A DNA stretch of 64,000 bases from Cryptosporangium aurantiacum (GTDB lineage: Bacteria; Actinomycetota; Actinomycetes; Mycobacteriales; Cryptosporangiaceae). Below are positions 15,704 through 30,315 of the stretch, piece by piece. Both the position numbers and the translations under genes were made by a program. The notes under the pieces were generated by a model. The model was not told the DNA's origin and made no database searches. It saw only the letters and a program-made list of their open reading frames with translations. Where the stretch lies: NCBI RefSeq assembly GCF_900143005.1, contig NZ_FRCS01000001.1, positions 1,426,001 through 1,490,000 of the forward strand, given 5' to 3'. Positions within the stretch are counted from its first letter, which is position 1. Each line of letters starts with the position of its first letter.

Positions 15704-17272
15704 TCACGGGATTCCGTGCCCGCTCACCCGGTCGAGCACGGCGTTCCAGTCGGCGGGCGCGGTGTCCGCGCGCCAGGCGATGTGCTGATCCGGGCGGACG
15801 AGCACCAGGCTCCGATCCCAGCTGGCCCGCACCGACCGGTCGGAGACGACGAGGTGCGCCATCGGGATCCCACGCTGCCGCGCGGCGAGCACCAGCGGCC
15901 GCCCCGCCTCGTCGTCGGTGAGGTCGACCAGCGTGAATTGCGGGCCGAGCCGGTCGAACAGCTGGGTGCCGTCGTCCAGCCGCACGGCCGGCGCCCTCCC
16001 GCCCACGGCCTCCTTGTCCTCCTGCCAGATCACGGTCGAGGTGGCGTACCGGCTGCCGAGCGCCAGACCGAGCGCGTCGTCGGTCGGCTCGACCTCCTGG
16101 CGGAGCACGCCGGCCAGGTACTCGCGGGACGCGCCGGCCGCGGCCAGCCGCCCGAAGCGCCGTCGCGTCTCCAGCCGGCGGGCCACCAGCTCCCGGTCGA
16201 TCAGCGCCCGCGGACGCCGCTCGTCCTCGTAGCTGTCGAGCAGGCCGGGCCCGCCCCAGCCGTTGACCACCGCGGCGAGCTTCCAGCCCAGGTCGACGGC
16301 GTCCCCGATGCTGGTCGCCGCGTTGTCGCCCGCCGGGTAGAACCGGTGCGCCGACTCGCCGACCAGGAACGCCCGTCCGAGCCGGTAGCGGCGAGCCACC
16401 GCCAGCGCGTCGTCCCACTGGGTCACGTCCAGGACCTCGACGGTCTCCAGCCGGCTACCCAGCTGCTGGCGCAGCAGCGCGACCGGATCGGCGGCGACCG
16501 GGTCACCGGGTGACATCCGCAGGTGCCCGACCCAGCGGTCGCCGTCCGGCCGGTACTCCAGCGTCAGGCTGCCGACGATGATCGTCGCCGGGTGGCGCTC
16601 TCCGAACCGGCGGCTCAGCTCCGGGCTGCGGAAGTACACGGAGCAGTGCTGGACCGGAGCGCTCAGCTCCGCCATCGGGACGTCGAGACACTGGCGGACC
16701 GTGCTCTGCGCGCCGTCGCACCCGGCCAGGTAGCGCGCCTCGATCGTGGTTCTGCCGGTGGCACCGGCGCTGCGGTCCAGCGCGGTGGCGACGATCCGGT
16801 CGGCCTCGATCCGCACGCCGGTGAACGTCCACCCCAGCCGCAGGTCGATCAGCGGGTGCTGCTCGACCGCGGTCCGCAGCTCGGCGGCGAGGCGCACCCC
16901 GGACACCCGCTGGGGCAGCTCCACCGGCGCGCTGCCGTCCTTCACGTCCGCGTAGCGTCCGCGCAGCTCGTCGAGGGACGGCACGGACGAGACCAGCACC
17001 GGTGGCTGGTCGAGACCCTGACTCCACTCCACCTCGTCGGGGACGTCGGGTCTCAGGCCCTGCGCCCGGATCGCGGCCGACAACCGCAGCCGGCGCAGCA
17101 GTTCCATGCTGCGGCCGTCCAGATAGTCCACGTCGGCGGACTGCGGTGGTGTGGCCGCGCGGTCCAGCACGATGCTCGGTACGCCGTGATGCGCCAGTTC
17201 CAGTGCGAGGATCGAGCCGACCGCGCCCGCTCCTACGACCAGCACCTGGGCTTCCGGCGCTGATGTGGCCAT
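15704..17272 (-). CDS. FAD-dependent aromatic monooxygenase (PheA/TfdB type)
   Basis: This 522-residue class A flavoprotein hydroxylase has the GxGxxG site 'VLVVGAGAVGSILALELAHHG' split over residues ~9-29, the 'YLAGCDGAQSTVRQCL' DG motif, and the FAD-binding 'AFLVGESAHRFYPAGDNAA'. The GD motif reads GE here (GESAH for the usual GDAAH). The ~140-residue thioredoxin-like C-terminal part ('GTQLFDRLGPQFTLVDL') is that of phenol-hydroxylase-type enzymes. The ATG at 17272 is preferred to one at 17320 because GGAGG lies 4 nt upstream. It lies on the same strand downstream of the LuxR regulator and is probably a tailoring enzyme of the aminohydroxybenzoate cluster. Confidence 0.88.
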   Translation of the reverse strand: MATSAPEAQVLVVGAGAVGSILALELAHHGVPSIVLDRAATPPQSADVDYLDGRSMELLRRLRLSAAIRAQGLRPDVPDEVEWSQGLDQPPVLVSSVPSLDELRGRYADVKDGSAPVELPQRVSGVRLAAELRTAVEQHPLIDLRLGWTFTGVRIEADRIVATALDRSAGATGRTTIEARYLAGCDGAQSTVRQCLDVPMAELSAPVQHCSVYFRSPELSRRFGERHPATIIVGSLTLEYRPDGDRWVGHLRMSPGDPVAADPVALLRQQLGSRLETVEVLDVTQWDDALAVARRYRLGRAFLVGESAHRFYPAGDNAATSIGDAVDLGWKLAAVVNGWGGPGLLDSYEDERRPRALIDRELVARRLETRRRFGRLAAAGASREYLAGVLRQEVEPTDDALGLALGSRYATSTVIWQEDKEAVGGRAPAVRLDDGTQLFDRLGPQFTLVDLTDDEAGRPLVLAARQRGIPMAHLVVSDRSVRASWDRSLVLVRPDQHIAWRADTAPADWNAVLDRVSGHGIP

Positions 17273-17356
17273 CGGACCTCCCCGTCGATCCCCCGTCGAT
17301 GCCCGTGGCAGCACCGCCACGTGACGTCATGCTGAAGCGGGGCGACGACCGCCGCC

Positions 17357-17374
17357 ATCACGTCTTTCCGTGAT
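17357..17374. promoter_or_regulatory. Dyad ATCACG-N6-CGTGAT upstream of the monooxygenase
   Basis: Perfect 6-bp arms sit in the 109-bp gap between the LuxR-type gene stop and the monooxygenase start. It may be an operator or a read-through attenuating hairpin. Confidence 0.35.
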
Positions 17375-17381
17375 TGCTGTG

Positions 17382-20156
17382 TCAGCCCGGGTTGTTCGCC
17401 GCGCGGTTCACCTGCGCGGCGAGCGCGACACGGCCCTGGATCTCCAGCTTCGCGAAGATCTTGCGGAGGTGGCTGTCGACGGTGTGCGGTGACAGATGGA
17501 GCCGCTGCGCGACCTGGTGATTGGTCAGCCCTTCGGCGACCAGGAGCGCGACCCGGCGCTCGGCGGGGGAGAGCCGGTCGAGCGGTGATTCCGGTGCGCG
17601 GCCGGGGGTGGCCGGTCCACCCAGCGCCTCCTCCAGGCGACGCCGCGCGCGGTGCGCGCCGCCCGCGGTGGCCAGCGCGTGGGCTTCCCGGCGCCACTCC
17701 CGGGCCTGCCGCGCGTCGCCGGTGAGCGCGGCGGCGTCCTCCAGCGCGGTGGCCAGCACGAGGTGGCGCGGCGTCCGGCGGTAGTGGCCGATCGCGGCGC
17801 GCAGAGTCGTCAGGTCGCGGCGGAGCAGGCCGTCGGTATGGGCAGCGGCGCCGGCCAGCGCGGGCAGGCCGGGGTTGCGCCGGGCCAGGCCGTCGGCGGC
17901 GCGGACGACGACCTTCGCGCGGGCGGAGTCGCCCCCGTCCAGGGCGATCCGGAGCAGCGTCGTCGCGTTGCCGGGGTCCTGCCCGATCAGCATCGGCCGG
18001 GTCGGCAGCGCGTCGAAGATCCCGGTCAGCCGCCGCAGCGCCGGCTCCGCGCCCGCGGTGGCGTGCGCGAACACCCCCTCGGCCCAGTCGACGTCCTCGG
18101 GGGCCGCGGTGATCCCGGTGTCCATCAACTCGTGCATCCGCCGCAGGTAGTCCGCGGCCGCGGTCAGCTCGTCGCGGACGACGGCCAGCCGGGTCAGCAT
18201 CGCGAGCAGCGGGACCGCCAGCTGGTGCGAGCCCAGCTGCGCGGCGACCGCGACCCCCGCGTCGGCCTCGGCGGCCGCCTCGTCGAGCTGGCCGCGTGCG
18301 GTCAGCAGCGCCGCGCCGTAGTAGTGCCAGAGCGGCGCCGACCAGCCGGTACCCAGCTGGACGGACTCCTGCCTGCCCCGTTCGAGCGCGCGGGCCGCGT
18401 CGTCGAAGCGGTCGAGCCCGGTGTAGGCGCTGGCCAGCCAGATCCGGGGGTGGCGCTGGAGCGCCTCGCCGCCGATCCGGTCGGCGGTCTCGGTGGCCTC
18501 CATCGCGTGCCCGTACGCCTCGTTCAGGTCGCCGACGGCCTGCGCGACCAGGCTGCGGGCCGTGCGTCCGAACACCGAGGCGCCGTACTCGCCGCAGGCG
18601 CGCCCGATCGCGTCGGCCAGCTCACCGGACCGGTCGGCGCCGTCCAGATCGTCGCTGTAGAACAGCGCGTGGGCGCGGATCGCGTACAGGCGCGCGGCCA
18701 GCGCGTCCGAGCCGGTGGCGTGCGCCAGGCCCTGCTCGGCGTAGTCGACCGCGGTCTGGTTCTTCCCAGCGTGCTTGAACGCCTCGGCGAGCCCGAGCAG
18801 CAGCAGCGCCTCGGTCTCCCGGTCCAGCCCGGCGCGCAGCGCGGTCCGGCCCAGCGCGTGCGCCTCGGGCAGCCGTCCGGCGGCAGCCAGCAGGCGGACG
18901 GCCTCGGCGACCAGCGGGTTGCGTCCGCTCCCGTGCTCACCGAGGACGGCGAGCGCGCGCAGGATCAGGTCGGCGGCGGTGCTCGGTGCGACGTCGGCGA
19001 CGTCTCTGGCGGCGGTGTGCAGCAGCTCGACCGCTTCCCGGTTGCCGTCCGCCCCGCCCTGGACGAGATGCCCGGCGACCTCCATCGGCGGCCGGCCGTC
19101 GGCGCGCGCGATCGCGGCGGCCTCCCGGTGCAGCACGACCGCGATCGACTCGCCGATCGTGTTGTACACCGCGGCGCGGATGCGCTCGTGGACGAACGTG
19201 AGCGCGCGCCCCTCGTCGACCAGGATCGCCGCCACGGTGGCCTGCTCGACCAGCGGCACCACATCGGCGGCCCGCACACCGACCAGCCGGGCGACCTCGT
19301 CGACGCCGAACGGGCGGTCGAACACCGACGCGGCCTGCACCATCCGCCGGGCCTCCACCGGCAGCTGGTCGAGGACCTGGCGGATCATCGCGACAAAACT
19401 CGACGGCAGCGCGGTGCCGACGACCGAGGCGACGCCGTCGGTGACCACCACTTGGTCGGTCACCCGCAGCGACGTCATCAGCTGCGCTACCGGCAGCGGG
19501 ATGCCGCCGAGGCTGCCGGCGAGCGCCGTGACCGTGCTGTCGACCTCGGCACCGAGTACCTGCGCGCAGAGCTCACCCACCGCGGCGTCGGTGAGGCCGC
19601 CGAGCGGCAGTTCCTCCGCGCCCTCCCGGATCAGCCAGTCCAGGACCTGCTGTCCGGGCGTGTCCGCCGGCTGCGGACGCCGGGCGAACAGCCACCGCAC
19701 GGCCGACGACGTCAGCGCGGGCACCAGCTGCCGGATCGCGAGCGCGCTGACCTCGTCCGTCCAGTGTGCGTCGTCGATCGCGACGACCAGCGGCTGCTCG
19801 GCGGCCCGCGCTTCGAGCGTCGCGCGCAGCCGCTCCAGCGTTCCGTACGTGTGGCCGGACTCGTCCGGTAGCCAGGCGAAGGCGTCGGTCGGCGGGTCGC
19901 ACTCCCGTAACGCGGACGCCAGCGTGATCAGCGGTACCGCGCGGTCCAGCTCGAACGCGCGCCGGGGTGCGACGGTCATCGACCGGTCGCGGGCGATCCG
20001 GACCGCGGCGCGCAGCAGGTGGGACTTGCCGATCCCCGGCGGTCCGCTCAGGACGAGACACCCGCCGGCGCCGTTCGCGGTATCGGTGAGGGCGCGCCGG
20101 ATCAGGTCGAGCTCGCGGTCGCGGCCGACCGGGGGGAACGGGCGCACAGAGATCAC
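17382..20156 (-). CDS. LuxR family regulator with AAA/STAND ATPase domain (LAL type)
   Basis: This ~924-residue protein has an N-terminal ATPase with Walker A 'SGPPGIGKSHLL' and Walker B-like 'LVVAIDDAHWTDE', a long helical TPR-like middle, and a C-terminal LuxR HTH 'LSPAERRVALLVAEGLTNHQVAQRL ... SPHTVDSHLRKIFAKL'. Such large LuxR (LAL) proteins are typical pathway-specific activators. The GTG at 20156 just before 'RPFPPVGRDREL' is chosen. A TTG at 20261 overlapping the upstream stop would add 35 residues without family character. It is the likely activator binding the paired CTAC/GTAG dyads of this cluster. Confidence 0.9.
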   Translation of the reverse strand: MISVRPFPPVGRDRELDLIRRALTDTANGAGGCLVLSGPPGIGKSHLLRAAVRIARDRSMTVAPRRAFELDRAVPLITLASALRECDPPTDAFAWLPDESGHTYGTLERLRATLEARAAEQPLVVAIDDAHWTDEVSALAIRQLVPALTSSAVRWLFARRPQPADTPGQQVLDWLIREGAEELPLGGLTDAAVGELCAQVLGAEVDSTVTALAGSLGGIPLPVAQLMTSLRVTDQVVVTDGVASVVGTALPSSFVAMIRQVLDQLPVEARRMVQAASVFDRPFGVDEVARLVGVRAADVVPLVEQATVAAILVDEGRALTFVHERIRAAVYNTIGESIAVVLHREAAAIARADGRPPMEVAGHLVQGGADGNREAVELLHTAARDVADVAPSTAADLILRALAVLGEHGSGRNPLVAEAVRLLAAAGRLPEAHALGRTALRAGLDRETEALLLLGLAEAFKHAGKNQTAVDYAEQGLAHATGSDALAARLYAIRAHALFYSDDLDGADRSGELADAIGRACGEYGASVFGRTARSLVAQAVGDLNEAYGHAMEATETADRIGGEALQRHPRIWLASAYTGLDRFDDAARALERGRQESVQLGTGWSAPLWHYYGAALLTARGQLDEAAAEADAGVAVAAQLGSHQLAVPLLAMLTRLAVVRDELTAAADYLRRMHELMDTGITAAPEDVDWAEGVFAHATAGAEPALRRLTGIFDALPTRPMLIGQDPGNATTLLRIALDGGDSARAKVVVRAADGLARRNPGLPALAGAAAHTDGLLRRDLTTLRAAIGHYRRTPRHLVLATALEDAAALTGDARQAREWRREAHALATAGGAHRARRRLEEALGGPATPGRAPESPLDRLSPAERRVALLVAEGLTNHQVAQRLHLSPHTVDSHLRKIFAKLEIQGRVALAAQVNRAANNPG

Positions 20157-20257
20157 CGAGGGGTTCGTCGTCCGGGTTCGCGGACGAATTGTTGTGGACG
20201 CCGTGGAGCGAACTGAACAGCCGTTCGGCCAGCTCGCGCCCGACAACTGGCGTCGAC

Positions 20258-22228
20258 TCAATCGCCGACGGATGAGAGATTACCGGCCGGACGTCCGCTT
20301 GTTGCCCGTACCAACTCCTCGACGAGGGCCGGGCCGTGTTCGGTGAGGACCGATTCGACGTGGAACTGCACCGACCGCATCCTGGGCGCGACCAGTGCGT
20401 GGACGGCGCCGCTCACGGGGTCACGGAGCACGTGCACCGGCCGGCCGGTGACCGGGCAGCGCCGGGCGTCGACGTCACTCACCGCGACGAACGTGTTGTA
20501 GAAGCCGACTCGCTCGGGCCTGCCGTACCAGTCGAGCCACCGCTGCACGCCCTGCGCGGGCTGCGGTAGCCGCCGGATCTCCAGTCCGAGGGTGGCAGCC
20601 AGCACCTGGTGACCCAGGCAGACCGCGAGCAGGGGACGCCGGGCGGCCAGCAGCGTCCGGGTGATCGTGTGCAGGCGTGCGATCCGGGGCGTTCCGGTGT
20701 CGCGCGGATCGCCGGGCCCCGGTCCGACCAGCACCGGGTCGTCCGGCCCGAACCCGTCGAACAGGACGTCGTCCGGCGCGGTGGCCGGGCGGATCCGCAC
20801 GTCGGCACCGAGCGAGCCGGCCACGGCCGCGAGCATCGCGGTGAAGTCGTCGCCCGCGTCGACGAGAAGAAGGCGCAGGCCCGCCGCTCCCCGACCGGCC
20901 CGACCGCTGCCCAGGCCGCGCCAGTATTCGGAGAGCCCGGCGTTCCGCGCCGCCAGCGCCGCCCGGATCCCTGGGTCCGCGAGGCGCGCGAGGCGCGCGG
21001 GGCGCGCCGGGCTCTCCGGGGCGGCGGCCGGGGCCGGGGCGGCGGCCGGGGCAGGGGTCGGGTCGTGCGGGGCCGGGCCTGTCGGGCCGTGGCCGAACGC
21101 GGTGGCGAGGGCCGTGGCCTTCGCCCGGGTCTCGGCGGCCTCGGCGGCCGGATCGGAGTGCCGGACGAGCGTCGCGCCGACGCCGATCGTCACCTCGCCG
21201 TCCGCGCGGACGTCCGCGGTCCGGATCAACAGCGCCGAGTCCAGGACGCGCCGCCCGGCGCGGCGTCCGAACAGCGCCAGCGCCCCGCCGTAGTACCCCC
21301 GGCCGGACCCCTCGTGGTCCGCGATCACCTCACAGGCGGCCGCCAGCGGGCTGCCGGTCACCGTCGGCGCGGGCAGCGTCTCGCGCAGCACCTCCCGCAC
21401 GTCGCGGGTGGTCGGTCCCTCGATCGCGTACTCGGTGTGCGTGACCCGGGACATCGTGCGCAGCCACGGACCGCGCAGCCGGGGCGGCGGCGCGCAGATC
21501 CGGGACATCGTCTTGAGTTCCTCGTCGACGACCATGAACAGTTCTTCGGTCTCTTTACGATCGGCGAGAAACGCGTGTAATTCCCGCTCGTCCGGGCGCC
21601 CGGCGGAATGGCGGTACGTCCCGCTGATCGGGCTCATCGTCGCGATTCCGTCCGCGCATCGCACCTGACATTCCGGCGTCGCGCCGATCAGCGTCCGGCC
21701 GTTCCAGTGCACGAGAAACGTCCAGTACGCGCCCTGCTCGGCGTGGAGCAACCGCCGGAAAACCGCGACGGCCACGTGCGGTGACCAGTCCGGGATCCGG
21801 GTCCGGAACGCGCGCCGCAGCACAAAATTCGACCCGATCCCGCGTCCGACACACTCCGCGACGACGCGCCGGACGGCGTCCTCGTACTCGGCGTCGGACA
21901 GGTCGAACCCGCCGGGCTCCGGTGCGGCCGGCCGCGCGTCCCACGCGTCCAGCGCGTCGACCGGCAGCGTCGCGGACGCGCGGACGGTGAGCGCGACCAG
22001 CGGTTCCCCGTCGTCGACGGCCCGCAGTCCGCGTTCGGTGACCTGGCGGAACGGCACCACGGCCAACACGTCCGGCCCGACGTCGGGGAGGGGGATATCG
22101 GCGAGACGCGAGACGACCGTCGCCTCGCCGGTGATCAGCTCCAACCGGGCGGATCCGCTCAGCCGGAGCAGCGCGAAGGCCTCGCCGGTCCGGAGAACGC
22201 GCGCCAGATCGAGGGAATTGTTCGTCAT
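20258..22228 (-). CDS. phzE: PhzE-like 2-amino-2-deoxyisochorismate synthase (chorismate synthase-type/GATase fusion)
   Basis: This 656-residue two-domain enzyme has an N-terminal anthranilate/isochorismate synthase-type domain (residues ~1-390): 'SPISGTYRHSAGRPDERELHAFL', 'EEL' and 'TVTGSPLAAACEVI', 'SGRGYYGGALALFG'. A ~50-residue Ala/Pro/Arg linker leads to a class I glutamine amidotransferase with 'GPGPGDPRDTG', nucleophile Cys in 'LAVCLGHQVLA', and 'SVQFHVES'. The fused order and length match PhzE, which makes ADIC from chorismate and glutamine, rather than the shorter TrpE. PhzD-like and EntA-like genes in the divergent operon support this. The start has GAGAG upstream. Confidence 0.88.
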   Translation of the reverse strand: MTNNSLDLARVLRTGEAFALLRLSGSARLELITGEATVVSRLADIPLPDVGPDVLAVVPFRQVTERGLRAVDDGEPLVALTVRASATLPVDALDAWDARPAAPEPGGFDLSDAEYEDAVRRVVAECVGRGIGSNFVLRRAFRTRIPDWSPHVAVAVFRRLLHAEQGAYWTFLVHWNGRTLIGATPECQVRCADGIATMSPISGTYRHSAGRPDERELHAFLADRKETEELFMVVDEELKTMSRICAPPPRLRGPWLRTMSRVTHTEYAIEGPTTRDVREVLRETLPAPTVTGSPLAAACEVIADHEGSGRGYYGGALALFGRRAGRRVLDSALLIRTADVRADGEVTIGVGATLVRHSDPAAEAAETRAKATALATAFGHGPTGPAPHDPTPAPAAAPAPAAAPESPARPARLARLADPGIRAALAARNAGLSEYWRGLGSGRAGRGAAGLRLLLVDAGDDFTAMLAAVAGSLGADVRIRPATAPDDVLFDGFGPDDPVLVGPGPGDPRDTGTPRIARLHTITRTLLAARRPLLAVCLGHQVLAATLGLEIRRLPQPAQGVQRWLDWYGRPERVGFYNTFVAVSDVDARRCPVTGRPVHVLRDPVSGAVHALVAPRMRSVQFHVESVLTEHGPALVEELVRATSGRPAGNLSSVGD

Positions 22229-22292
22229 CGATTTTCTCTCGGGTTGGTGAAATCCGTTTCGGACGGTGCCGGTTCGTGCCCGCCGATGGCAA

Positions 22293-22308
22293 CTACTCGA
22301 TCGGGTAG
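22293..22308. promoter_or_regulatory. LuxR-type dyad, site A (CTACTCGATCGGGTAG)
   Basis: A 16-bp near-palindrome in the divergent promoter between phzE-like and griI-like genes. It shares 12 of 16 positions with site B, centred 18 bp away on the same face. Confidence 0.6.
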
Positions 22309-22310
22309 CC

Positions 22311-22326
22311 CTACTCGCAGGAGTAG
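22311..22326. promoter_or_regulatory. LuxR-type dyad, site B (CTACTCGCAGGAGTAG)
   Basis: A near-palindrome with perfect 6-bp arms. It would abut a poor -35 (TGGGGT) upstream of a TAGCGT -10 box at 22350-22355, the position expected for an activator at the griI-like promoter. Confidence 0.6.
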
Positions 22327-22349
22327 TGGGGTCGGCGTCCGAATCGGAT

Positions 22350-22355
22350 TAGCGT
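22350..22355 (+). promoter_or_regulatory. Candidate -10 box (TAGCGT) of the aminohydroxybenzoate operon
   Basis: It lies 24 nt downstream of dyad B and 38 nt upstream of the first gene, which has its own GAGGAG ribosome binding site. The -35 is poor, consistent with activator dependence. Confidence 0.4.
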
Positions 22356-22392
22356 CCGGAGTAACACCTCATGAGATCCGAGGAGAAATACC

Positions 22393-23169
22393 GTGTCTTT
22401 TGCGCGTCGGATTCGACTGCAGCATTTATATCGCCGCGACTCCGCCGGCCTGGTGATCGTTCCGCTCGATCACCCGATCAGCGTGGGTCCGGCTGCCCAC
22501 AGCGGACGCCTGGACCGGCTGGTCGGGGAGATCGCCGACAACGGTGCGGACGCCGTCGTGCTGCACAAGGGCGCGGTGCGTCAGATCCGCCCGCGCTGGT
22601 TCCGGTCGATGTCCCTGCTCGTGCACCTGAGCGCCAGCACCGGGCTGGCCGGTGATCCGGACGCCAAGTACCTGGTGTGCGGCGTCGAGGAAGCGCTGCG
22701 CCTCGGCGCGCACGGGGTGAGCGTCCACGTGAACGTCGGGTCGGTCACCGAGGCGCGGCAGATCGCCGACCTCGCGGCGGTCGCCGAGGCGTGCGACCGG
22801 TGGGGCGTCCCGTTGCTGGCGATGGTGTACGTCCGTGGACCGGCGGTCGTCGACGGCCGGGCGCCGGACGTCGTCGCGCACGCGGTGACGGTCGCCGCGG
22901 AGCTGGGCGCCGACCTGGTGAAGACCGCGCTGCCGGACTCCGCCACCGAGGTCGCGGCGATCGTCGCGTCCTGCCCGGTGCCGGTGGTGGCGGCCGGGGG
23001 AGCGACGGCCGACCCGGAGGACACGTTCCGCCACCTGCTCACCGCGGTGCACGGCGGCGCGGGCGGTGTTGCGGCCGGGCGTCTGGTGTTCACCGCGGAC
23101 GACCCGGGCGAGCGGGTCCGGCGGCTCACCGCGCTCGTCCACGACCGCGCCGCGGCGGTGACCCGATGA
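22393..23169 (+). CDS. griI: GriI/ADH-synthase-like class I aldolase
   Basis: This 258-residue protein is of the DeoC/FbaB aldolase superfamily. 'LVIVPLDHPISVGP' matches the phosphate-proximal 'VPMDHGVSxGP' of archaeal ADH synthase and GriI. 'ADLVKTALPD' holds the Schiff-base Lys (~residue 177), and 'PVVAAGGATADPEDTF' and 'GAGGVAAGRLVF' form the phosphate site. GriI-type enzymes condense dihydroxyacetone phosphate with aspartate semialdehyde into the C7 precursor of 3-amino-4-hydroxybenzoate; the archaeal counterpart feeds aromatic amino acids. The adjacent GriH-like gene and cluster context favour the GriI role. The GTG has GAGGAG upstream. First gene of a seven-gene operon. Confidence 0.85.
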   Translation: MSFARRIRLQHLYRRDSAGLVIVPLDHPISVGPAAHSGRLDRLVGEIADNGADAVVLHKGAVRQIRPRWFRSMSLLVHLSASTGLAGDPDAKYLVCGVEEALRLGAHGVSVHVNVGSVTEARQIADLAAVAEACDRWGVPLLAMVYVRGPAVVDGRAPDVVAHAVTVAAELGADLVKTALPDSATEVAAIVASCPVPVVAAGGATADPEDTFRHLLTAVHGGAGGVAAGRLVFTADDPGERVRRLTALVHDRAAAVTR

Positions 23170-24281
23170 CGGGCCGGCGCACGCAGTGCTGGCTGGATCT
23201 GCGGAACCTCGGCGAGGTCACCGACGTCGTCCGGGAAGAGGCGCTGCACGCCGGGTTCAACGCGTTCCTCGCCGCCGACCCGGCCGACCTCGGCGCGCTA
23301 CCGCCGACGGTCACGCGCGTTCTCGTCCCCAAAGGACCGGACCTGCCCCACGACGTCGGGACAGCCGACCTGGTCGTGGTCGACCCGGCCGTGCACGGCA
23401 CGGCCGGCCGTCTCGCGGCCGCCTACCCCGGCACCCGGTTGGGGACCTACCTCGAGGTCACCGACGCCGACACGCTCGCCGCCGCCTGCGAGAGCGCCCG
23501 CCGCGACCCGTGCACGGTGCTCCGGTTCCGTGACCCGACGAACATCCCGCTGGAGATCGTGCTGGCGGCCGCCGCCAACGCCGACGGTCTCATCGTCACG
23601 GTGATCGGCGACGCGGTCGAGGGCGCGGTCCACGCCGACGTGCTCGAACACGGGCCGGGCGGTGTGCTGCTGGAGGCCGCGCAGCCGGGTGAGGCGACCC
23701 GGCTCGCGGCCGCGGTCCGGCACCGCTCGCCGGATCTGGAGCTGTCCACGTTCACGGTCACCGGCATCACCCACGCGGGCGCCGGTGAGCGGGCCTGCGT
23801 CGACACGTGCACGTACCTGCACCAGGACGAAGGCATCCTGGTCGGCTCCCGGGCCAGGGCGCTGGTGCTCTGCGTCAGCGAGACCCACCCGCTGCCGTAC
23901 ATGCCGACCCGTCCGTTCCGGGTCAACGCGGGCGCGGTGATGTCGTACACGCTGGCCGACGCCGAGCACACCCGGTACCTGAGCGAGCTCCGGGCGGGCA
24001 GCACGGTGCTCGCGGTCGGGGCCGACGGCCGGACCCGCCGCGTTCCGGTCGGCCGGGTGAAGATCGAGACCCGGCCGCTGCTCTCGATCGACGCGGTCGC
24101 GGAGTCCGGGGAAGCGGTCAACCTGATCGTCCAGGACGACTGGCACGTGCGGGTCCTCGGGCCGGGCGCGGCCGTGCTGAACTCCACCGCGCTCCGCCCC
24201 GGCGACACGCTGCTCGGCTACTTGCCCGAACGGGCGCGGCACGTCGGGTACCCGATCGACGAACTGTGTCACGAGCAGTGA
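23166..24281 (+). CDS. griH: GriH/3-dehydroquinate synthase II-like enzyme
   Basis: This 371-residue protein starts on the ATGA of the aldolase gene. It has the whole DHQS-II pattern: a divergent N-terminal half, then 'GERACVDTCTYLHQDEGILVGSRARALVL', 'RPFRVNAGAVMSYTL', 'TRYLSELRAGSTVLAV' and 'GRVKIETRPLLSID' (residues ~215-330), ending 'RARHVGYPIDE'. GriH converts the GriI product to 3-amino-4-hydroxybenzoate with Mn2+; archaeal homologues make dehydroquinate. The pairing and order griI-griH in one operon, together with a second aromatic route, argue for secondary metabolism. Confidence 0.85.
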   Translation: MTGRRTQCWLDLRNLGEVTDVVREEALHAGFNAFLAADPADLGALPPTVTRVLVPKGPDLPHDVGTADLVVVDPAVHGTAGRLAAAYPGTRLGTYLEVTDADTLAAACESARRDPCTVLRFRDPTNIPLEIVLAAAANADGLIVTVIGDAVEGAVHADVLEHGPGGVLLEAAQPGEATRLAAAVRHRSPDLELSTFTVTGITHAGAGERACVDTCTYLHQDEGILVGSRARALVLCVSETHPLPYMPTRPFRVNAGAVMSYTLADAEHTRYLSELRAGSTVLAVGADGRTRRVPVGRVKIETRPLLSIDAVAESGEAVNLIVQDDWHVRVLGPGAAVLNSTALRPGDTLLGYLPERARHVGYPIDELCHEQ

Positions 24282-25030
24282 AACCGGCGCCCGCCCCGAA
24301 TGTCGTCGACTTCCACGCGCGGCTGGCGCCGGGGTTGCTCACGACGATGGACGCGTGCGGCATCACCCGCGCGGCGGTCTCCGCGGGCGGCCTGGTCGAC
24401 CTCGACACGCTGTCCGACCGGCTGGTGGAGGCGCACCGCGGTGACGAGCCCGCCGACAACGCGGCCGTTCTCCGCAGTGCCCAGGCGTCCGGCGGGCGGC
24501 TGCTGCCGTTCTTCTTCGCCGACCCGCGGTGCGACGTCGAGGCCTACGCGAAGGCCGCCCCGGACTTCCGCGGCCTGGAGATCTCACCCGCGGTGCACGG
24601 CGTCCGCCTCGACGATCCGGGCGTGACCGCGCTCGTCGCGACCGCGGCCGAACACCACCACCCGGTCTACCTGGTCTGCCTCGGCCGGCCCGGCACCCGC
24701 GCGGCCGACCTCGTCGCGCTCGCCACCGCGTTCCCGACCGTCGACTTCGTGTTCGGGCACTGCGGCTTCACCGGCCTGGATGCCCGCGGCCTCGCCACGA
24801 TCGCGCCGCAGCCGAACATCGCCGCCGAGACGTCCGGCTGTTTCACCGCGGTCGCCCGGCTGGCGCTGGCCAGGCTCGGCCCGGCCCGGGTGCTGTTCGG
24901 CACCGAGTACCCCCTGCAAGACCCCCGGGTGGAGCTGGCCAAGCTCGCCGCCCTCGACCTCGAACCGCCCGTCCTCCGCGCGATGACGTCGGAGAACGCG
25001 CTCCGTCTGCTCGGAGAGGAAAACCGATGA
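24278..25030 (+). CDS. Amidohydrolase-fold protein lacking canonical metal ligands
   Basis: This 250-residue protein starts at a GTG overlapping the previous stop. The TIM-barrel order of the amidohydrolase-2 family is clear: 'VVDFHARLAP' at the N-terminus, 'FRGLEISPAVHGV', 'FVFGHCGFTGLD', 'VLFGTEYPLQDP' and the closing 'NALRLLGEE'. However, the HxH motif is HxR (H13, R15), the strand-5 His position reads 'VYLVCLGRPG', and the usual final Asp in 'FGTDYP' is Glu. A classical binuclear metal centre is therefore unlikely. In benzoxazole pathways an amidohydrolase-fold protein closes the ring, and its position next to an AMP ligase suggests that role here. Confidence 0.8.
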   Translation: MKPAPAPNVVDFHARLAPGLLTTMDACGITRAAVSAGGLVDLDTLSDRLVEAHRGDEPADNAAVLRSAQASGGRLLPFFFADPRCDVEAYAKAAPDFRGLEISPAVHGVRLDDPGVTALVATAAEHHHPVYLVCLGRPGTRAADLVALATAFPTVDFVFGHCGFTGLDARGLATIAPQPNIAAETSGCFTAVARLALARLGPARVLFGTEYPLQDPRVELAKLAALDLEPPVLRAMTSENALRLLGEENR

Positions 25031-26295
25031 AGCTGCCCGAGATCGGGGACTGGTCCTCGTTCGAGGAACTGGCCCGGCTCCAGGACGCCCGGCTGGACGC
25101 GGTGCTCGCGGCCGCCGCCCGGTCGCCGTTCTACCAGCGCCGGGGCGTCCCGGCCGACCTCACCCACGCGGAACCGACCACCACCGCCGACCTGCGCGAC
25201 GCCTATCCGTTCGGGATGCTCGCGGTCGACCGCGCCGAGCTGGCCACGTACCACGAGTCCAGCGGAAGCAGCGGAGCCCCGACCGCGTCGTACTACACCG
25301 CCGCGGACTGGGAGGACCTCGCCGGGCGGTTCGCACGCAAGTGGACCGGCATCCGCGAGTCGGACACGTTCCTGGTCCGGACGCCGTACGCGCTGATGAT
25401 CACCGGGCACCTCGCGCACGCGGCGGCCCGTCGCGCGGGGGCGACCGTCGTCCCGGCCGACAACCGCTCGTCGGCGATGCCGTACGGGCGGCTGATCCGC
25501 GTGCTGCACGACCTCGACGTGACCGTCACCTGGTCGCTGCCGACCGAGACACTGCTCTGGGTCGCCGCCGCGCGGCTGGCCGGGTACGAACCGGGCCGCG
25601 ACTTCCCGGCGCTGCGCGCGCTGTTCGTGGCCGGCGAGCCGCTCAGCCCCGCGCGCCGGGCTCGGATCGGCGCGCTCTGGGGCGTCCCGGTCGTCGAGGA
25701 GTACGGCGCGACCGAGGCCGGGAGCCTGGCCGGTGTGTGCCCGCACGGCCGCCTGCACCTGTGGGCCGACCGGGTGCTGGTCGAGGTCCGCGACCCGGCC
25801 ACCGGACAGGTCAAACCGGACGGACGAGGGCGCCTCGTCGTCACGCCGCTCTACCGGGACGCGATGCCGCTGCTCCGCTACGAGCTGGAGGACGAGGTCG
25901 AGGTCACCTACCGGGCCTGCGCCTGCGGCTGGTGGCTGCCGGACGTCTGGGTGCTGGGCCGGTCGGCGCACGTCGGGCACGCGGTCACCCAGGTCGACCT
26001 GGAGGAGCAGGTGTTCTCGCTGCCCGCCGAGTTCGGCGTGCTGTTCTGGCGCGCCCGGATCGACGGGGCCCGGCTGGAGATCCAGATCGAGGTCAATGCG
26101 CGGCACCGTGCGGCGGCGACTCGAGCGCTGGCGGCCGCGGTCACCGACGCGTACGCGCTGGACGTGACCGTGGACGCGGTGCCGCCGGGCCGCCTGGTGC
26201 CGGTGGAGCTGCTGACCGCCGCGCCGGACGTACTGAAACCGCGGATGCTGTTCGGCCCGGGCGAGCCCTGGGACGCCGCACATCGGTACTACTGA
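25027..26295 (+). CDS. AMP-forming ligase (phenylacetate-CoA ligase-like, ANL superfamily)
   Basis: This 422-residue protein is coupled by ATGA to the amidohydrolase-like gene. It shows the PaaK layout: 'YHESSGSSGAPTASYYT' (P-loop, residues ~78-94), 'LFVAGEPLSPARRARIG', 'VPVVEEYGATEAGSL' (YGxTE) and 'PLLRYELEDEVEV' (adenylation Asp), with a compact C-terminal domain. 'ACACGWWLPDVWVLGRSAHV' resembles the Cys-containing stretch of PaaK. It probably activates an aminohydroxybenzoate carboxylate as acyl-AMP, for transfer to the amine of a second unit or to CoA. No carrier-protein gene is seen. Confidence 0.87.
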   Translation: MKLPEIGDWSSFEELARLQDARLDAVLAAAARSPFYQRRGVPADLTHAEPTTTADLRDAYPFGMLAVDRAELATYHESSGSSGAPTASYYTAADWEDLAGRFARKWTGIRESDTFLVRTPYALMITGHLAHAAARRAGATVVPADNRSSAMPYGRLIRVLHDLDVTVTWSLPTETLLWVAAARLAGYEPGRDFPALRALFVAGEPLSPARRARIGALWGVPVVEEYGATEAGSLAGVCPHGRLHLWADRVLVEVRDPATGQVKPDGRGRLVVTPLYRDAMPLLRYELEDEVEVTYRACACGWWLPDVWVLGRSAHVGHAVTQVDLEEQVFSLPAEFGVLFWRARIDGARLEIQIEVNARHRAAATRALAAAVTDAYALDVTVDAVPPGRLVPVELLTAAPDVLKPRMLFGPGEPWDAAHRYY

Positions 26296-26297
26296 CG

Positions 26298-27424
26298 ATG
26301 GGCATCCGGATCGCCGTGGTGGGCGGAGGCATCGGGGGGCTCACCACCGCACGAGCACTGAACACCGTAGGGCTGCCCTGCGTCGTCCTCGAACGAGCCG
26401 GCGTCCCCCGGGAGACCGGCTACGGCATCCAGCTGGGCCCGGACGGCGCCCGGCTGCTGCCGAACCTCGGCGTCCACCTCGACGGCACCGCGGTCCGGCC
26501 GGTCACCAGGGAGCTGCGGCGCTGGAGCGACAACACGCTGCTGAGCCGCGAAACGCTGCCCGCGCCGTACTTCACGCTGCCCCGTTCCGAGCTGCACCGC
26601 CTCCTGTCCGCCGACGTCCCGGTGCGGCACGGGACGCCGTGTGCCGGGGTCACCGAGACACCGGACGGCGTCACGCTGGAGCTGGCGGACGGCGGCACGC
26701 TCACCGCGGACCTGGTGATCGGGGCCGACGGCCTGCACTCGGTGGTCCGGGCGGCGGTCGGCGCGGACGAGGTGCGGTGCTCGGGGTCGTCCGCCTTTCG
26801 TGCGGTGGTTCGCCGGGATGCGCCGCCGCGGGTGGTCGTCTGGCTGGGGCCCGGTCAGCACTGCGTCGCGTACCCGATCGCGCCCGGCTTGCTCAACGTC
26901 GTGGCGACGGTCGGCGTCCCGGGCGGTCCCCGTCCGTTGCCGGCCGACCCACTTCCCGCCTACCACGACTGGCATCCGGACGTTCGGCAGCTGCTCGCCG
27001 CAGGTCGGACGCCGTCCGCACACGGACTGTTCGACCGGCCGCCGCTGGCCCGGTGGCACACTCGCCGGATCGTGCTGGTCGGCGACGCCGCGCACCCGAT
27101 GCTGCCGTACCGGGCGCAGGGGGCTTCGCTGGCGATCGAGGACGCGACAACGCTCGCCGCGTGCCTCGCGTCCGGCCCGCTCGAGGACGCGACGGACCTG
27201 GCCCGCGCGCTGGCCCGGTACGACGCGCTGCGGCGGCCCCGGGTCGCCGCGGTCGCCGACGCGGTGCGGGCGGCGGCACGCGACCACGACCTCCCGGACG
27301 GCCCGGATCAACAGAACCGAGACCGCCGCCTAGCCGAGGAGCCCGCCGCAGTCCCGATCAACCCCGCGCCACCGCCCGAAGCCGCACCACCGCCCGGGGC
27401 CGCGCCGCGGGTGGGGGCCGACCG

Positions 27425-27428
<4 letters not shown>
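26298..27428 (+). CDS. FAD-dependent monooxygenase (salicylate-hydroxylase-like)
   Basis: This 376-residue class A flavoprotein follows the ligase gene by 2 nt. It has the dinucleotide site 'IAVVGGGIGGLTTARAL' (residues ~4-20), 'DLVIGADGLHSVVRAAVG' (DG motif) and 'RIVLVGDAAHPMLPYRAQGASLAIEDATTLA' split over the FAD pyrophosphate and ribityl site, as in salicylate and 3-hydroxybenzoate hydroxylases. The last ~40 residues are Pro/Ala rich and look disordered. It is probably a ring hydroxylase or decarboxylating hydroxylase acting on one of the aminohydroxybenzoates. Confidence 0.88.
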
Positions 27429-28228
<800 letters not shown>

Positions 28229-28245
28229 CCACGAGGAGTTCCCCG

Positions 28246-28878
28246 GTGCCGATCCCGTCCATCGCCTCCTACGCCATGCCGACCGCCGCCGAGCTGACCG
28301 TCGGCCCGGCGGCCTGGCGTCCGGACCCCGCGCGAGCCGCGCTGCTGGTCCACGACATGCAGGGCTACTTCCTGGACTTCTTCCCACCGGACCGCTCGCC
28401 CACCACCGAGCTGCTGACCAACGTCGCGCGGCTGAAGGCCGCGGCGGCGGCGTGCGGCATGCCGGTGATCCACACCGCGCAGCCGGGCCGGATGACGCGG
28501 TCCGCGCGCGGGCTACTGCACGACCTGTGGGGTCCGGGTATGACCGACGAGCCGCGGGCGCGGGACATCGTGCCCGCGGTGGCGCCGCAGCCCGGCGACG
28601 CGGTGCTCGTCAAGCACCGCTACAGCGCGTTCCACCGCACGACGCTCGCCGCGGACCTCGCCGCGGCGGGGCGCGACCAGCTCGTGGTGTGCGGGGTGTT
28701 CGCGCACATCGGTTGCCTGCTCACCGCCGCCGACGCGTACGCGCACGACGTCGAGCCGTTCCTGGTGGCTGACGCGGTCGCAGACTTCAGCGCCGAGGAA
28801 CACCGGATGGCGCTCCGGTACGCGGCCCGCCGCTGCGCGGCCACCCCGACGACCGACCAGGTGCTCGCGGAGCTCTGA
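28246..28878 (+). CDS. phzD: PhzD-like isochorismatase-family hydrolase
   Basis: This 210-residue alpha/beta hydrolase starts at GTG with GAGGAG upstream. The start '[15 protein letters not shown]', catalytic Asp in '[14 protein letters not shown]', Lys in '[12 protein letters not shown]' and '[19 protein letters not shown]' match PhzD closely. PhzD hydrolyses the vinyl ether of ADIC, giving pyruvate and trans-2,3-dihydro-3-hydroxyanthranilate. There is no ArCP domain as in EntB. It ends the operon and fits with the PhzE-like gene transcribed divergently. Confidence 0.9.
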
Positions 28879-28902
28879 CCCGCCCGACCCGCGATCGCCG
28901 GC

Positions 28903-29028
28903 TCAGTCGGACGGCTCGCTCTCCGCGCTGTCGAACGGCAGTCCCGATCCGGTCAGCTCGACCCGGATCGAGTACGGTCCGGGCTCGGTCGGGAGCGCCG
29001 GTAGGCGCCCGGTCCGCGGTCCGTGGGG
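28903..29028 (-). pseudogene. Remnant of a decayed gene downstream of the LuxR gene
   Basis: In the same frame directly after the LuxR stop, a 41-codon open stretch reads 'PHGPRTGRLPALPTEPGP' then '[18 protein letters not shown]', ending in its own TGA. This looks like the beta-strand tail of a soluble protein (the G-x-Y-x-x-R-V pattern) rather than random sequence. There is no start codon or ribosome binding site, so it is probably the 3' end of a lost gene. Confidence 0.35.
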
Positions 29029-30315
29029 TCAGGCGGTGACCGGGTCGTCGCCGGGGTCCGCGCCGGGTTCGGCGAGATCACGAGCGAGCCGGGCGAGCTC
29101 GATCCGCGACGTGAGCTCCAGCTTCCGGAAAATCTGCCGGAGGTGGTAGTTGACCGTGTGCGGCGAGCGGCCGATCCGGTGCGCGATCTGCTGGTTGGTC
29201 AGTGCGCAGCCGACCAGCTCCGCGATCTGCCGCTCCTGCTCGGTGAGCCCGTCCCACTCCTCGCCGGCCGCGGGCCGGGTGGGCTCGGCACCCCGCACCC
29301 GCCGGGTGAACCGCTCCTTCGGCGCTGTTCGAGGGCGACCGGCCGGCGCCCCGGGTTCCCGGCGGAGCGCGGTGCGCTCGTCGCGGAGCGCGACCCGGAC
29401 CGACCGGGGGAGCGACCCCTCGACCGTGGCCCGCACCAGCTCGTGGCGGAACACGAGGTCCTCGTCTGCGCCCACGACCAGCCCGCACGCGATCGCCTCG
29501 TCCACCGCGGGCACGAGCGCGGCCGCGTTGCGGTGAAGCAGCCTCGCCAGTTCGCGGAGCCCGAAGCGCGGCCCGATCGTGGCCGCGACCTGCACCAGGT
29601 GGCGCGCGGACGGCGAGAGCGCGGCCAGCGTCGCGTCCAATCGAACCCGGGTGCGGGCAGGCAGGCGGACCGCCACCACACCGGCGCGGCCGCCGTCGAC
29701 CCGCAGCAGCGACTCCTCGCGCAGCCCCGCCACGAGGTCCTCGACTGCCTGCGGGTTCCCGGCGGCGACCGCGCTCAGCGTGCGCAGGTCGGCATCCGGC
29801 ACACCACCGGCCAGCGCGGTCAGCAACGTCGCCACCGCGGGCGGCGGCAGCGGGTCGAGCACCACCCGGTGCGGGCCGTCCTGCGCGATCTGGTCCGGCT
29901 CCGTCCACGTCGCGCCGGACCGCCGGACCAGCACGACCAGCACCGGAACGGTCCGCGCGATCGCCTCCAGCTCCGGCCACACCAGCGCGTGGATCCACTG
30001 CGGACGCTCACAGGTCAGCAGCCGCGGCACGGTGCCACCGGGTGACCCGTCCGCGGTCCGGTCGGCCGCGACGATCCGCCACATGCCGCTGCCGTCGATC
30101 CAATCGGCCTCGCGCACCGTGGCCGCCCCACGGCGGCGGGCCGCGGTGACGAACTCCTGCAGCAGGCGGCTCGTCCCGCTCCCGCGGGCCCCCTCCACCA
30201 CCGCCAGCGTCAGACGGCCCGCCGCCGTCCGGTCCAGAAGCTCCTGTAGTCTTCGCAGCTCGCGCTCTCTGCCCACGAGCGCCCGAGACACGGGGTGCCG
30301 CCGATCCCCCTGCAC
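29029..30315 (-). CDS. LuxR family regulator with degenerate ATPase domain
   Basis: This 428-residue protein is a short version of the LAL type. The N-terminal NTPase-like region has 'VEGARGSGTSRLLQEF', where the Walker A Lys is Thr, so ATP binding is doubtful. 'LVVLVRRSGATW' stands where a Walker B would be. The C-terminus carries the LuxR HTH 'LTEQERQIAELVGCALTNQQIAHRI ... SPHTVNYHLRQIFRKL' (residues ~345-405). The GTG start is the earliest in frame. It flanks the aminohydroxybenzoate operon on its right and may be its second regulator. Confidence 0.87.
   Translation of the reverse strand: MQGDRRHPVSRALVGRERELRRLQELLDRTAAGRLTLAVVEGARGSGTSRLLQEFVTAARRRGAATVREADWIDGSGMWRIVAADRTADGSPGGTVPRLLTCERPQWIHALVWPELEAIARTVPVLVVLVRRSGATWTEPDQIAQDGPHRVVLDPLPPPAVATLLTALAGGVPDADLRTLSAVAAGNPQAVEDLVAGLREESLLRVDGGRAGVVAVRLPARTRVRLDATLAALSPSARHLVQVAATIGPRFGLRELARLLHRNAAALVPAVDEAIACGLVVGADEDLVFRHELVRATVEGSLPRSVRVALRDERTALRREPGAPAGRPRTAPKERFTRRVRGAEPTRPAAGEEWDGLTEQERQIAELVGCALTNQQIAHRIGRSPHTVNYHLRQIFRKLELTSRIELARLARDLAEPGADPGDDPVTA

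What the first reader, a model, noticed from the sequence alone, without database searches (positions are those of the whole stretch)
15704..30315. Biosynthetic cluster predicted to make two different aminohydroxybenzoates and join them
One seven-gene operon plus a divergent gene encodes GriI/GriH-like enzymes (3-amino-4-hydroxybenzoate from DHAP and aspartate semialdehyde) and PhzE/PhzD/EntA-like enzymes (3-hydroxyanthranilate from chorismate). It also encodes an AMP-forming ligase, an amidohydrolase-fold protein and two FAD hydroxylases. There is no NRPS, PKS or carrier protein. Ligase plus amidohydrolase is the known gene signature of benzoxazole pathways (nataxazole, A33853, closoxazole types). 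Having both monomer routes in one operon would predict a mixed benzoxazole or amide.
Basis: partly seen in the sequence, partly recalled or inferred. Interest (0 to 1): 0.85.

Follow-up and report, generated by a model that had tools for sequence, protein, structure and literature searches.

The report
Mixed aminohydroxybenzoate dimer gene cluster
This is a compact actinomycete gene cluster, shared with a number of related bacteria, that appears to build two different small aromatic acids and join them, probably into a benzoxazole; it is unusual because its predicted ring-closing enzyme lacks part of the usual metal-binding site.

Summary
Observation confirmed: 15704-30315 holds a seven-gene operon (GriI, GriH, amidohydrolase, ligase, FAD hydroxylase, EntA-like, PhzD) divergent from PhzE, a LuxR regulator and a second FAD hydroxylase. 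The ligase is of the NatL2/AjiA1 benzoxazole type and keeps NatL2's reported substrate-site residues. I count 29 loci with GriI, GriH, this amidohydrolase and ligase; 16 also carry the complete 3-hydroxyanthranilate (3-HAA) set nearby, so the pairing is conserved. Six lack it locally, three of them in genomes where no PhzD or EntA was found at the cut-offs used, so the core does not strictly need it. GriI/GriH as shikimate enzymes is disfavoured.

The amidohydrolase is not NatAM-like: it is a short PF04909 protein, and in 27 of 29 loci HxH is HxR and the beta-5 His is gone. A 3-HAA-only control cluster with a related ligase has a true NatAM instead. Best reading: a cross-coupled ester closed to a benzoxazole by a metal-site-altered amidohydrolase. 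No product was tested and the ClxD/PfxB amidohydrolases of closoxazole could not be compared. New variant of a known kind.

The parts
15704..17320 (-). FAD-dependent aromatic hydroxylase (PF01494 + PF21274)
   Evidence: orthologues in many related loci
17382..20261 (-). large LuxR-type (LAL) regulator: AAA_16 + GerE; true start uncertain
20258..22228 (-). PhzE-type 2-amino-2-deoxyisochorismate synthase (chorismate-binding + glutamine amidotransferase)
   Evidence: PDB 3r74 495.7 bits, next best 86.4 bits
22229..22392 (.). intergenic region between the two divergent operons (by position; promoters not tested)
   Evidence: sequence
22393..23169 (+). GriI-type aldolase: aspartate semialdehyde + DHAP route to 3-amino-4-hydroxybenzoate
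   Evidence: BagB_FevI 308.4 bits, cut-off 500; MJ0400 204.5 bits; Asp, Tyr and Lys motifs located, their catalytic role recalled
23166..24281 (+). GriH-type 3,4-AHBA synthase (DHQS II family PF01959)
   Evidence: PF01959 seen on the longer ORF 22677-24281; (BagC_FevH 474.3 bits, cut-off 750)
24278..25030 (+). 250-aa PF04909 amidohydrolase; HxH is HxR, beta-5 His is Val, beta-8 Asp is Glu; proposed ring-closing enzyme
25027..26295 (+). NatL2/AjiA1-type AMP ligase, proposed ester-forming cross-coupler
26298..27428 (+). FAD hydroxylase, salicylate / 3-hydroxybenzoate hydroxylase type; homologues sit next to GriI/GriH in other PF01959 loci
   Evidence: absent from closest relative L085
27425..28228 (+). 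EntA-like SDR: proposed dihydro-3-hydroxyanthranilate dehydrogenase
   Evidence: (TIGR04316 340.7 bits, cut-off 300)
28246..28878 (+). PhzD-type isochorismatase
   Evidence: PhzD 233.3 bits, EntB-type 2fq1 197 bits
29029..30315 (-). LuxR-type regulator at the end of the cluster

Best explanation
The cluster makes 3-amino-4-hydroxybenzoate (GriI, GriH) and 3-hydroxyanthranilate (PhzE, PhzD, EntA-like). The NatL2-type ligase adenylates one acid, most likely 3-HAA, and passes it to the phenol of the other, most likely 3,4-AHBA, giving an unstable mixed ester. The PF04909 amidohydrolase then drives attack of the ortho-amine and loss of water to a benzoxazole, predicted 2-(2-amino-3-hydroxyphenyl)benzoxazole-5-carboxylic acid ([M+H]+ 271.0713) before tailoring. 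The FAD hydroxylase of the + strand operon acts most likely on the 3,4-AHBA side. Shown here: gene content, its conservation, ligase active-site conservation, loss of metal ligands in the amidohydrolase. Inferred: which acid is donor, that the ring is closed, and that Arg15 or another residue stands in for zinc.
For: Ligase matches AjiA1 504.9 bits and NatL2 491.1 bits, the ClxA chain 161.5, and keeps NatL2's Glu235, Thr239, Thr128, Thr135, Arg156, Trp178, the Zn ligands Cys248/His254/Cys308/Cys310 and the cross-dimer Lys418 (roles from PMC7204872). ClxA, a 3,4-AHBA enzyme, differs at Thr128, Thr135, Arg156, Trp178 and Glu235 but keeps Thr239 and the four Zn-ligand residues (PMC12519233). PhzE, PhzD and EntA-like enzymes fit the ADIC-DHHA-3-HAA route. 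16 of 29 core loci hold the complete 3-HAA set in the neighbourhood and 23 of 29 hold at least PhzE. Aspartokinase lies in at least 11 of 29 loci, directly upstream of GriI in 8, supporting aspartate semialdehyde as GriI substrate. Salicylate-type FAD homologues sit beside GriI/GriH in 3 of 6 other PF01959 loci that show no ligase or amidohydrolase in the roughly 4 kb held. The amidohydrolase shows purifying selection, dN/dS 0.36, 0.45, 0.20 and 0.28 in four pairs that share loci.
Against: Six of 29 loci lack the 3-HAA set locally (L041, L043, L045, L049, L052, L095), and three of their genomes (G397, G399, G403) show no PhzD at E 1e-30 and no EntA at E 1e-50 (150 of 187-192 candidates scored), yet L041, L043, L045 and L049 keep Glu235; kynureninase, another possible 3-HAA source, is in 16 of 17 genomes. 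Ala212 to Gly, which I first took as a sign of a 3,4-AHBA acceptor, also occurs in the 3-HAA-only ligase of L093. Loss of two metal-ligand His argues against a NatAM-like zinc mechanism. The window and L085 have Thr where NatL2 has Lys62. Three Phytohabitans loci have PhzE and PhzD with a PhzF-family gene and no local EntA. L051 has a second AMP-binding protein near the core. No ClxD or PfxB sequence could be compared.
Confidence: 0.45

Rival explanations
1. The core makes a 3,4-AHBA homodimer benzoxazole (closoxazole-like), and 3-HAA is added as a third unit or goes into a separate product.
For: The four core genes occur without the 3-HAA set in 6 of 29 loci; closoxazole clusters have the same four functions (PMC12118335).
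Against: The ligase is NatL2-like, not ClxA-like; no second AMP ligase was seen among the window proteins scanned, though L051 has one.
Confidence: 0.25
2. The joined product stays an ester or rearranges to an amide, as in bagremycin/ferroverdin-type chemistry, and the metal-site-altered amidohydrolase does another step (for example decarboxylation) or is a scaffold.
For: Best NCBIfam match of the ligase is the BagE_FevW bagremycin/ferroverdin synthetase model, 529.6 bits, below its cut-off of 800 (ester chemistry of BagE recalled); the amidohydrolase lacks canonical metal ligands; after 3cjp the top structure matches are mostly hydroxybenzoate decarboxylases and related amidohydrolases; NatL2-type esters rearrange to amides on their own (PMC7204872).
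Against: Amidohydrolase and ligase genes are adjacent in every one of the 29 loci; hydroxybenzoate decarboxylases of this family also need a metal (recalled).
Confidence: 0.22
3. GriI/GriH serve an archaeal-type shikimate pathway and the locus is not about 3,4-AHBA.
For: Names of the broad subfamily models whose cut-offs are passed (PRK07226.1 274.4 against 241; PRK02290.1-3 494.2 against 375).
Against: Two PF01761 hits in the genome; PF01959 in 6 of 148 class genomes; neighbours are a ligase, an amidohydrolase and, in at least 11 of 29 loci, an aspartokinase.
Confidence: 0.03
4. Mixed aminophenoxazinone formed by oxidative coupling of the two o-aminophenols.
For: Both monomers are o-aminophenols.
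Against: No phenoxazinone synthase or tyrosinase-like protein among those scanned; does not explain ligase and amidohydrolase.
Confidence: 0.05

Closest known systems
Nataxazole / AJI9561 / A33853 / microechmycin benzoxazole pathways (3-HAA homodimer)
   Same: NatL2/AjiA1-type ligase with conserved donor and acceptor residues; 3-HAA made from chorismate by three dedicated genes
   Different: no NatAM-type amidohydrolase (PF01979 type, 494 aa in L093); instead a 250-aa PF04909 protein; adds a complete 3,4-AHBA route
Closoxazole pathways of Clostridium cavendishii and Pyxidicoccus fallax (3,4-AHBA)
   Same: same four functions: aldolase, 3,4-AHBA synthase, AMP ligase, amidohydrolase with little similarity to NatAM
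   Different: ligase is NatL2-like, not ClxA-like; no second ligase seen in the window; extra 3-HAA set and FAD hydroxylases; ClxD/PfxB sequences not available for comparison
Bagremycin/ferroverdin and grixazone-type 3,4-AHBA pathways
   Same: GriI/GriH pair close to the BagB/BagC models; best NCBIfam model of the ligase is BagE/FevW
   Different: scores below those models' curated cut-offs; amidohydrolase and 3-HAA genes added (gene content of the known clusters recalled)

Membership tests
3,4-AHBA route (GriI/GriH type) | adjacent aldolase and DHQS-II homologues in a genome that has canonical DHQ synthase elsewhere | tested here: met
3,4-AHBA route (GriI/GriH type) | curated BagB_FevI and BagC_FevH cut-offs | tested here: not met
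   308.4 against 500 and 474.3 against 750; these are narrow 'exception' models
3,4-AHBA route (GriI/GriH type) | makes 3,4-AHBA from aspartate semialdehyde and DHAP | not testable with these tools
   needs enzyme assay; aspartokinase in at least 11 of 29 loci is indirect support
3-HAA from chorismate (PhzE/PhzD/EntA type) | ADIC synthase, PhzD-type isochorismatase and dehydrogenase together | tested here: met
NatL2/NatAM benzoxazole pathway | NatL2-type ligase with Glu235, Arg156, Zn site and Lys418 | tested here: met
   Lys62 is Thr in the window
NatL2/NatAM benzoxazole pathway | NatAM-type amidohydrolase with three His and one Asp at zinc | tested here: not met
   contrast L093 protein, 603.6 bits to NatAM 6SJ0
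Closoxazole pathway | ClxA-type ligase residues | tested here: not met
Closoxazole pathway | amidohydrolase homologous to ClxD/PfxB | not tested
   no ClxD or PfxB sequence reachable; the paper gives only low similarity to NatAM
Any benzoxazole pathway | benzoxazole product | not testable with these tools
   needs expression and NMR

The most novel reading that the evidence does not exclude
An actinomycete cluster family that cross-couples two isomeric aminohydroxybenzoates from unrelated primary pathways and closes the oxazole ring with an amidohydrolase that has given up the canonical zinc site, using Arg15 (in place of the second metal His) and partners such as Glu101 to stabilise the oxyanion: a metal-independent benzoxazole synthase.
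Probability: 0.25. Interest if true: 0.75.

Novelty: new variant of a known kind. Interest (0 to 1): 0.6.

Why it matters
It offers a defined set of 29 natural clusters in which the ligase, the ring-closing enzyme and the monomer genes vary, so it can show how benzoxazole enzymes choose between isomeric monomers. If the amidohydrolase closes the ring without the usual metal site, it would extend what this superfamily is known to do and add a tool for making mixed benzoxazoles.

Tried and rejected
Archaeal-type shikimate use of GriI/GriH: disfavoured. Ala212 to Gly as an acceptor marker: rejected after the 3-HAA-only control L093 showed it too. Glu235 as a clean marker for the 3-HAA set: rejected, it stays in L041, L043, L045 and L049; Asp appears in L051, L052 and L095, of which L051 does have the 3-HAA set about 16-19 kb from GriI. 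Plasmid collection for close relatives: no ligase match at E 1e-30, and only one weak amidohydrolase match for each of two queries. No paper on a mixed 3-HAA/3,4-AHBA cluster turned up in the searches; I saw their listings and opened five papers in part. The library lacks most subscription journals, and the 2022 closoxazole paper is not held.

Weak points of method: the ORF callers are simple codon-position GC scripts and missed genes; presence was therefore taken from tblastn, except that aspartokinase and PhzF in part of the loci rest on the clustering. Most loci were searched within 10 kb of the amidohydrolase; wider stretches were fetched only for L035, L051, L087, L094 and L095. L040, L044 and L048 end at contig ends. 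L048 is not in the trees. One amidohydrolase hit, L024, of the 27 given to the alignment gave no row. Kynurenine 3-monooxygenase was not searched. NatL2 residue 68 is Gln in my numbering while the paper names Arg68; unresolved.
Full report
What is there. On the + strand seven genes run head to tail with 4-base overlaps or gaps of 2-17 bases: GriI-type aldolase, GriH-type synthase, a 250-aa amidohydrolase, an AMP ligase, an FAD hydroxylase, an EntA-like dehydrogenase and a PhzD-type isochorismatase. On the - strand a PhzE-type synthase, a large LuxR regulator and a second FAD hydroxylase run away from it; a further LuxR gene closes the cluster. The ten flanking proteins scanned look unrelated. 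The window lies on one contig of a 9.58 Mb genome in 44 contigs.

The 3,4-AHBA half. GriI scores 308.4 bits against the bagremycin/ferroverdin aldolase model (cut-off 500), 274.4 against a broad ADH-synthase subfamily (cut-off 241, passed) and 247.4 against the ADH-synthase equivalog (cut-off 299.45, not passed). GriH scores 494.2 against a broad DHQS-II subfamily (cut-off 375, passed), 474.3 against the BagC/FevH 3,4-AHBA synthase model (cut-off 750) and at most 220.7 against DHQS-II equivalogs. The genome has two hits to the canonical DHQ synthase family PF01761. PF01959 occurs in 6 of 148 genomes of the class, the window's own among them, and of 14 control genomes only in three archaea. At least 11 of 29 related loci carry an aspartokinase (L035, L037, L039, L044, L046, L051, L052, L087, L091, L092, L094), directly upstream of GriI in eight of them (L035, L044, L046, L051, L087, L091, L092, L094), which fits aspartate semialdehyde as substrate; none was seen among the window proteins scanned. 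A shikimate role is therefore unlikely, though no tree with archaeal sequences was built.

The 3-HAA half. PhzE matches phenazine PhzE (3r74) with 495.7 bits, next best 86.4; the isochorismatase is nearer PhzD (233.3 bits) than EntB-type 2fq1 (197 bits); the dehydrogenase passes the DhbA cut-off (340.7 against 300). Three dedicated genes making 3-HAA are described for A33853 and microechmycin (PMC9864271, part 1 of 4 read); that they are of PhzE, PhzD and EntA type is recalled.

Conservation. One scan of genome contigs with the amidohydrolase gave 17 loci, 14 in named organisms such as Phytohabitans, Actinoplanes relatives, Catenuloplanes, Streptomyces and Actinosynnema, and three in metagenome-assembled genomes. 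Among 394 class genomes 87 had some match, but only the window and two others (53% and 47% identity) stood clear of the rest at 36% or less (regions). The ligase matched 12 of 397 order genomes at E 1e-80 (regions). After dropping L088 (duplicate of L042) and L093 (no GriI, GriH or this amidohydrolase) there are 29 core loci. Complete PhzE, PhzD and EntA in the neighbourhood: 16 (window, L035/L054, L036, L042, L046, L047, L050, L051/L059 at about 16-19 kb from GriI, L053, L085, L086, L087/L100, L089, L091, L092, L094/L097). Contig ends before it can be told: 3 (L040, L044, L048; all show PhzE, the first two also EntA). PhzE and EntA but no PhzD: 1 (L090; a PhzD homologue lies about 430 kb away). 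PhzE and PhzD with a PhzF-family gene and no local EntA: 3 (L037-L039; PF02567 tested on L037 only). None locally: 6 (L041, L043, L045, L049, L052, L095). In the tree of amidohydrolase plus ligase, the 22 rows scored full or none need at least four changes; of the eight core lineages at the unresolved base seven hold a full locus and the eighth is a contig-cut one. Loss from a two-pathway ancestor is thus the simpler story. G397, G399 and G403 (L041, L043, L049) have no PhzD at E 1e-30 and no EntA at E 1e-50; L052's genome has no PhzE beyond TrpE-like matches. 16 of 17 genomes have kynureninase, so another 3-HAA source is possible. Of the three Phytohabitans genomes, G395 shows no EntA at E 1e-50 and G394 and G396 show one elsewhere.

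The ligase. It matches AjiA1 and NatL2 with 504.9 and 491.1 bits; the ClxA chain scores 161.5. In NatL2, Glu235 holds the 3-hydroxyl of the donor 3-HAA, and Thr128, Thr135, Trp178, Ala211, Ala212 and Arg156 form the acceptor pocket (PMC7204872, parts 1-3 of 4 read). All but Ala212, which is Gly, are kept in the window. In ClxA, a 3,4-AHBA enzyme, Glu235 is Tyr218, Thr243 is Asn226 and Thr135 is Pro120 (PMC12519233, parts 1-2 of 3 read); Thr243 is Ser in the window. This favours 3-HAA as donor, but Glu235 is also kept in L041, L043, L045 and L049, which lack the 3-HAA set, and is Asp in L051, L052 and L095. Gly at 212 is not informative, since L093 has it too. The window and its sister L085 have Thr at Lys62.

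The amidohydrolase. It is a PF04909 protein. PDB phmmer finds a match to 3cjp (E 1.7e-4), a chance-level one to a carboxyvanillate decarboxylase, and no NatAM. An AlphaFold2 model (mean pLDDT 91.9) is nearest by Foldseek to 3cjp and then to hydroxybenzoate decarboxylases and their kin; NatAM is not among the 50 rows shown. Aligned with 26 class-level relatives, the window protein has Arg15 for the second His of HxH, Val133 for the beta-5 His, Glu101 for the beta-4 Lys and Glu210 for the beta-8 Asp, keeping His13, His161 and Glu184 (the role of each position in ACMSD-type enzymes is recalled). The HxR form is in 27 of 29 loci, none of which has the beta-5 His; only L051 and L052 keep both. A model of the L052 protein (mean pLDDT 92.0) has similar best matches. 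Seven of the 26 distant relatives also lack HxH, so loss alone is not unique. dN/dS of 0.36, 0.45, 0.20 and 0.28 in four pairs says the gene is not decaying. As a contrast, L093 has PhzE, PhzD, EntA and a related ligase with no GriI/GriH found in 20 kb, and carries a true NatAM (603.6 bits to 6SJ0) and an O-methyltransferase, which resembles a microechmycin-type cluster. So this one control, and the published 3-HAA clusters, use NatAM, while the loci with 3,4-AHBA genes use the other protein.

Hydroxylases. Homologues of the salicylate-type FAD enzyme lie beside GriI/GriH in 3 of 6 other PF01959 loci (L063, L066, L069), which show neither the ligase nor the amidohydrolase in the roughly 4 kb held. 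It is also present in loci without the 3-HAA set, such as L041, L043 and L049. A 3,4-AHBA-side substrate is therefore likely. It is missing between ligase and EntA in L085, the closest relative, so it is accessory.

Mechanism and known work. NatL2 makes an unstable ester that NatAM closes with zinc (PMC7204872), and PfxB of the closoxazole pathway also acts on an ester, whereas ClxD was reported to take an amide (PMC12118335, introduction and results read). By analogy the mixed ester here would be closed by the PF04909 protein; how it does so without the full metal site is open. Whether ClxD and PfxB have the same change could not be tested, and the answer would decide how new this is. Mycemycin clusters also contain an amidohydrolase and join two aryl units but draw on the kynurenine route (PMC5867642, part 1 of 4 read). 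No paper describing a cluster with both monomer routes turned up.

Verdict. The mixed dimer is the leading reading, near even odds. The altered amidohydrolase is the most surprising part and was not in the finding.

Noticed in passing
L037:13849-14655, and members of the same ORF cluster in L038 and L039: Three Phytohabitans clusters have a PhzF-family gene (PF02567, tested on L037) next to PhzD and no local EntA, suggesting a different fate of dihydro-3-hydroxyanthranilate.
   Followed up: partly
L093 (G661): A microechmycin-like 3-HAA-only cluster with NatAM orthologue, NatL2-type ligase and O-methyltransferase.
   Followed up: partly
L037:640-1248 and eight other loci: A conserved family of about 200 aa near the second FAD hydroxylase with no Pfam match (scanned for L037 only); no member was called in the window region compared (8-40 kb).
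   Followed up: no
L055, L056, L057, L058: PhzE homologues elsewhere in four genomes lacking the local 3-HAA set, with no match to window PhzD or EntA in the 19 kb fetched around each.
   Followed up: partly
G000:C8:290356-290694 (L062): A second DHQ-synthase-family gene in the window's genome, perhaps a cyclitol synthase.
   Followed up: no
window 25027-26295: Thr replaces NatL2 Lys62 in the window and L085; every other related ligase aligned there has Lys.
   Followed up: no
L071 (Klebsiella michiganensis plasmid): A GriI/GriH-like pair with an adenylate-forming enzyme and an MFS gene, outside actinomycetes.
   Followed up: no
L051:17458-18504: A second AMP-binding protein close to the core in Streptomyces sp. 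NRRL F-5135, possibly a ClxC-like third-unit ligase.
   Followed up: no
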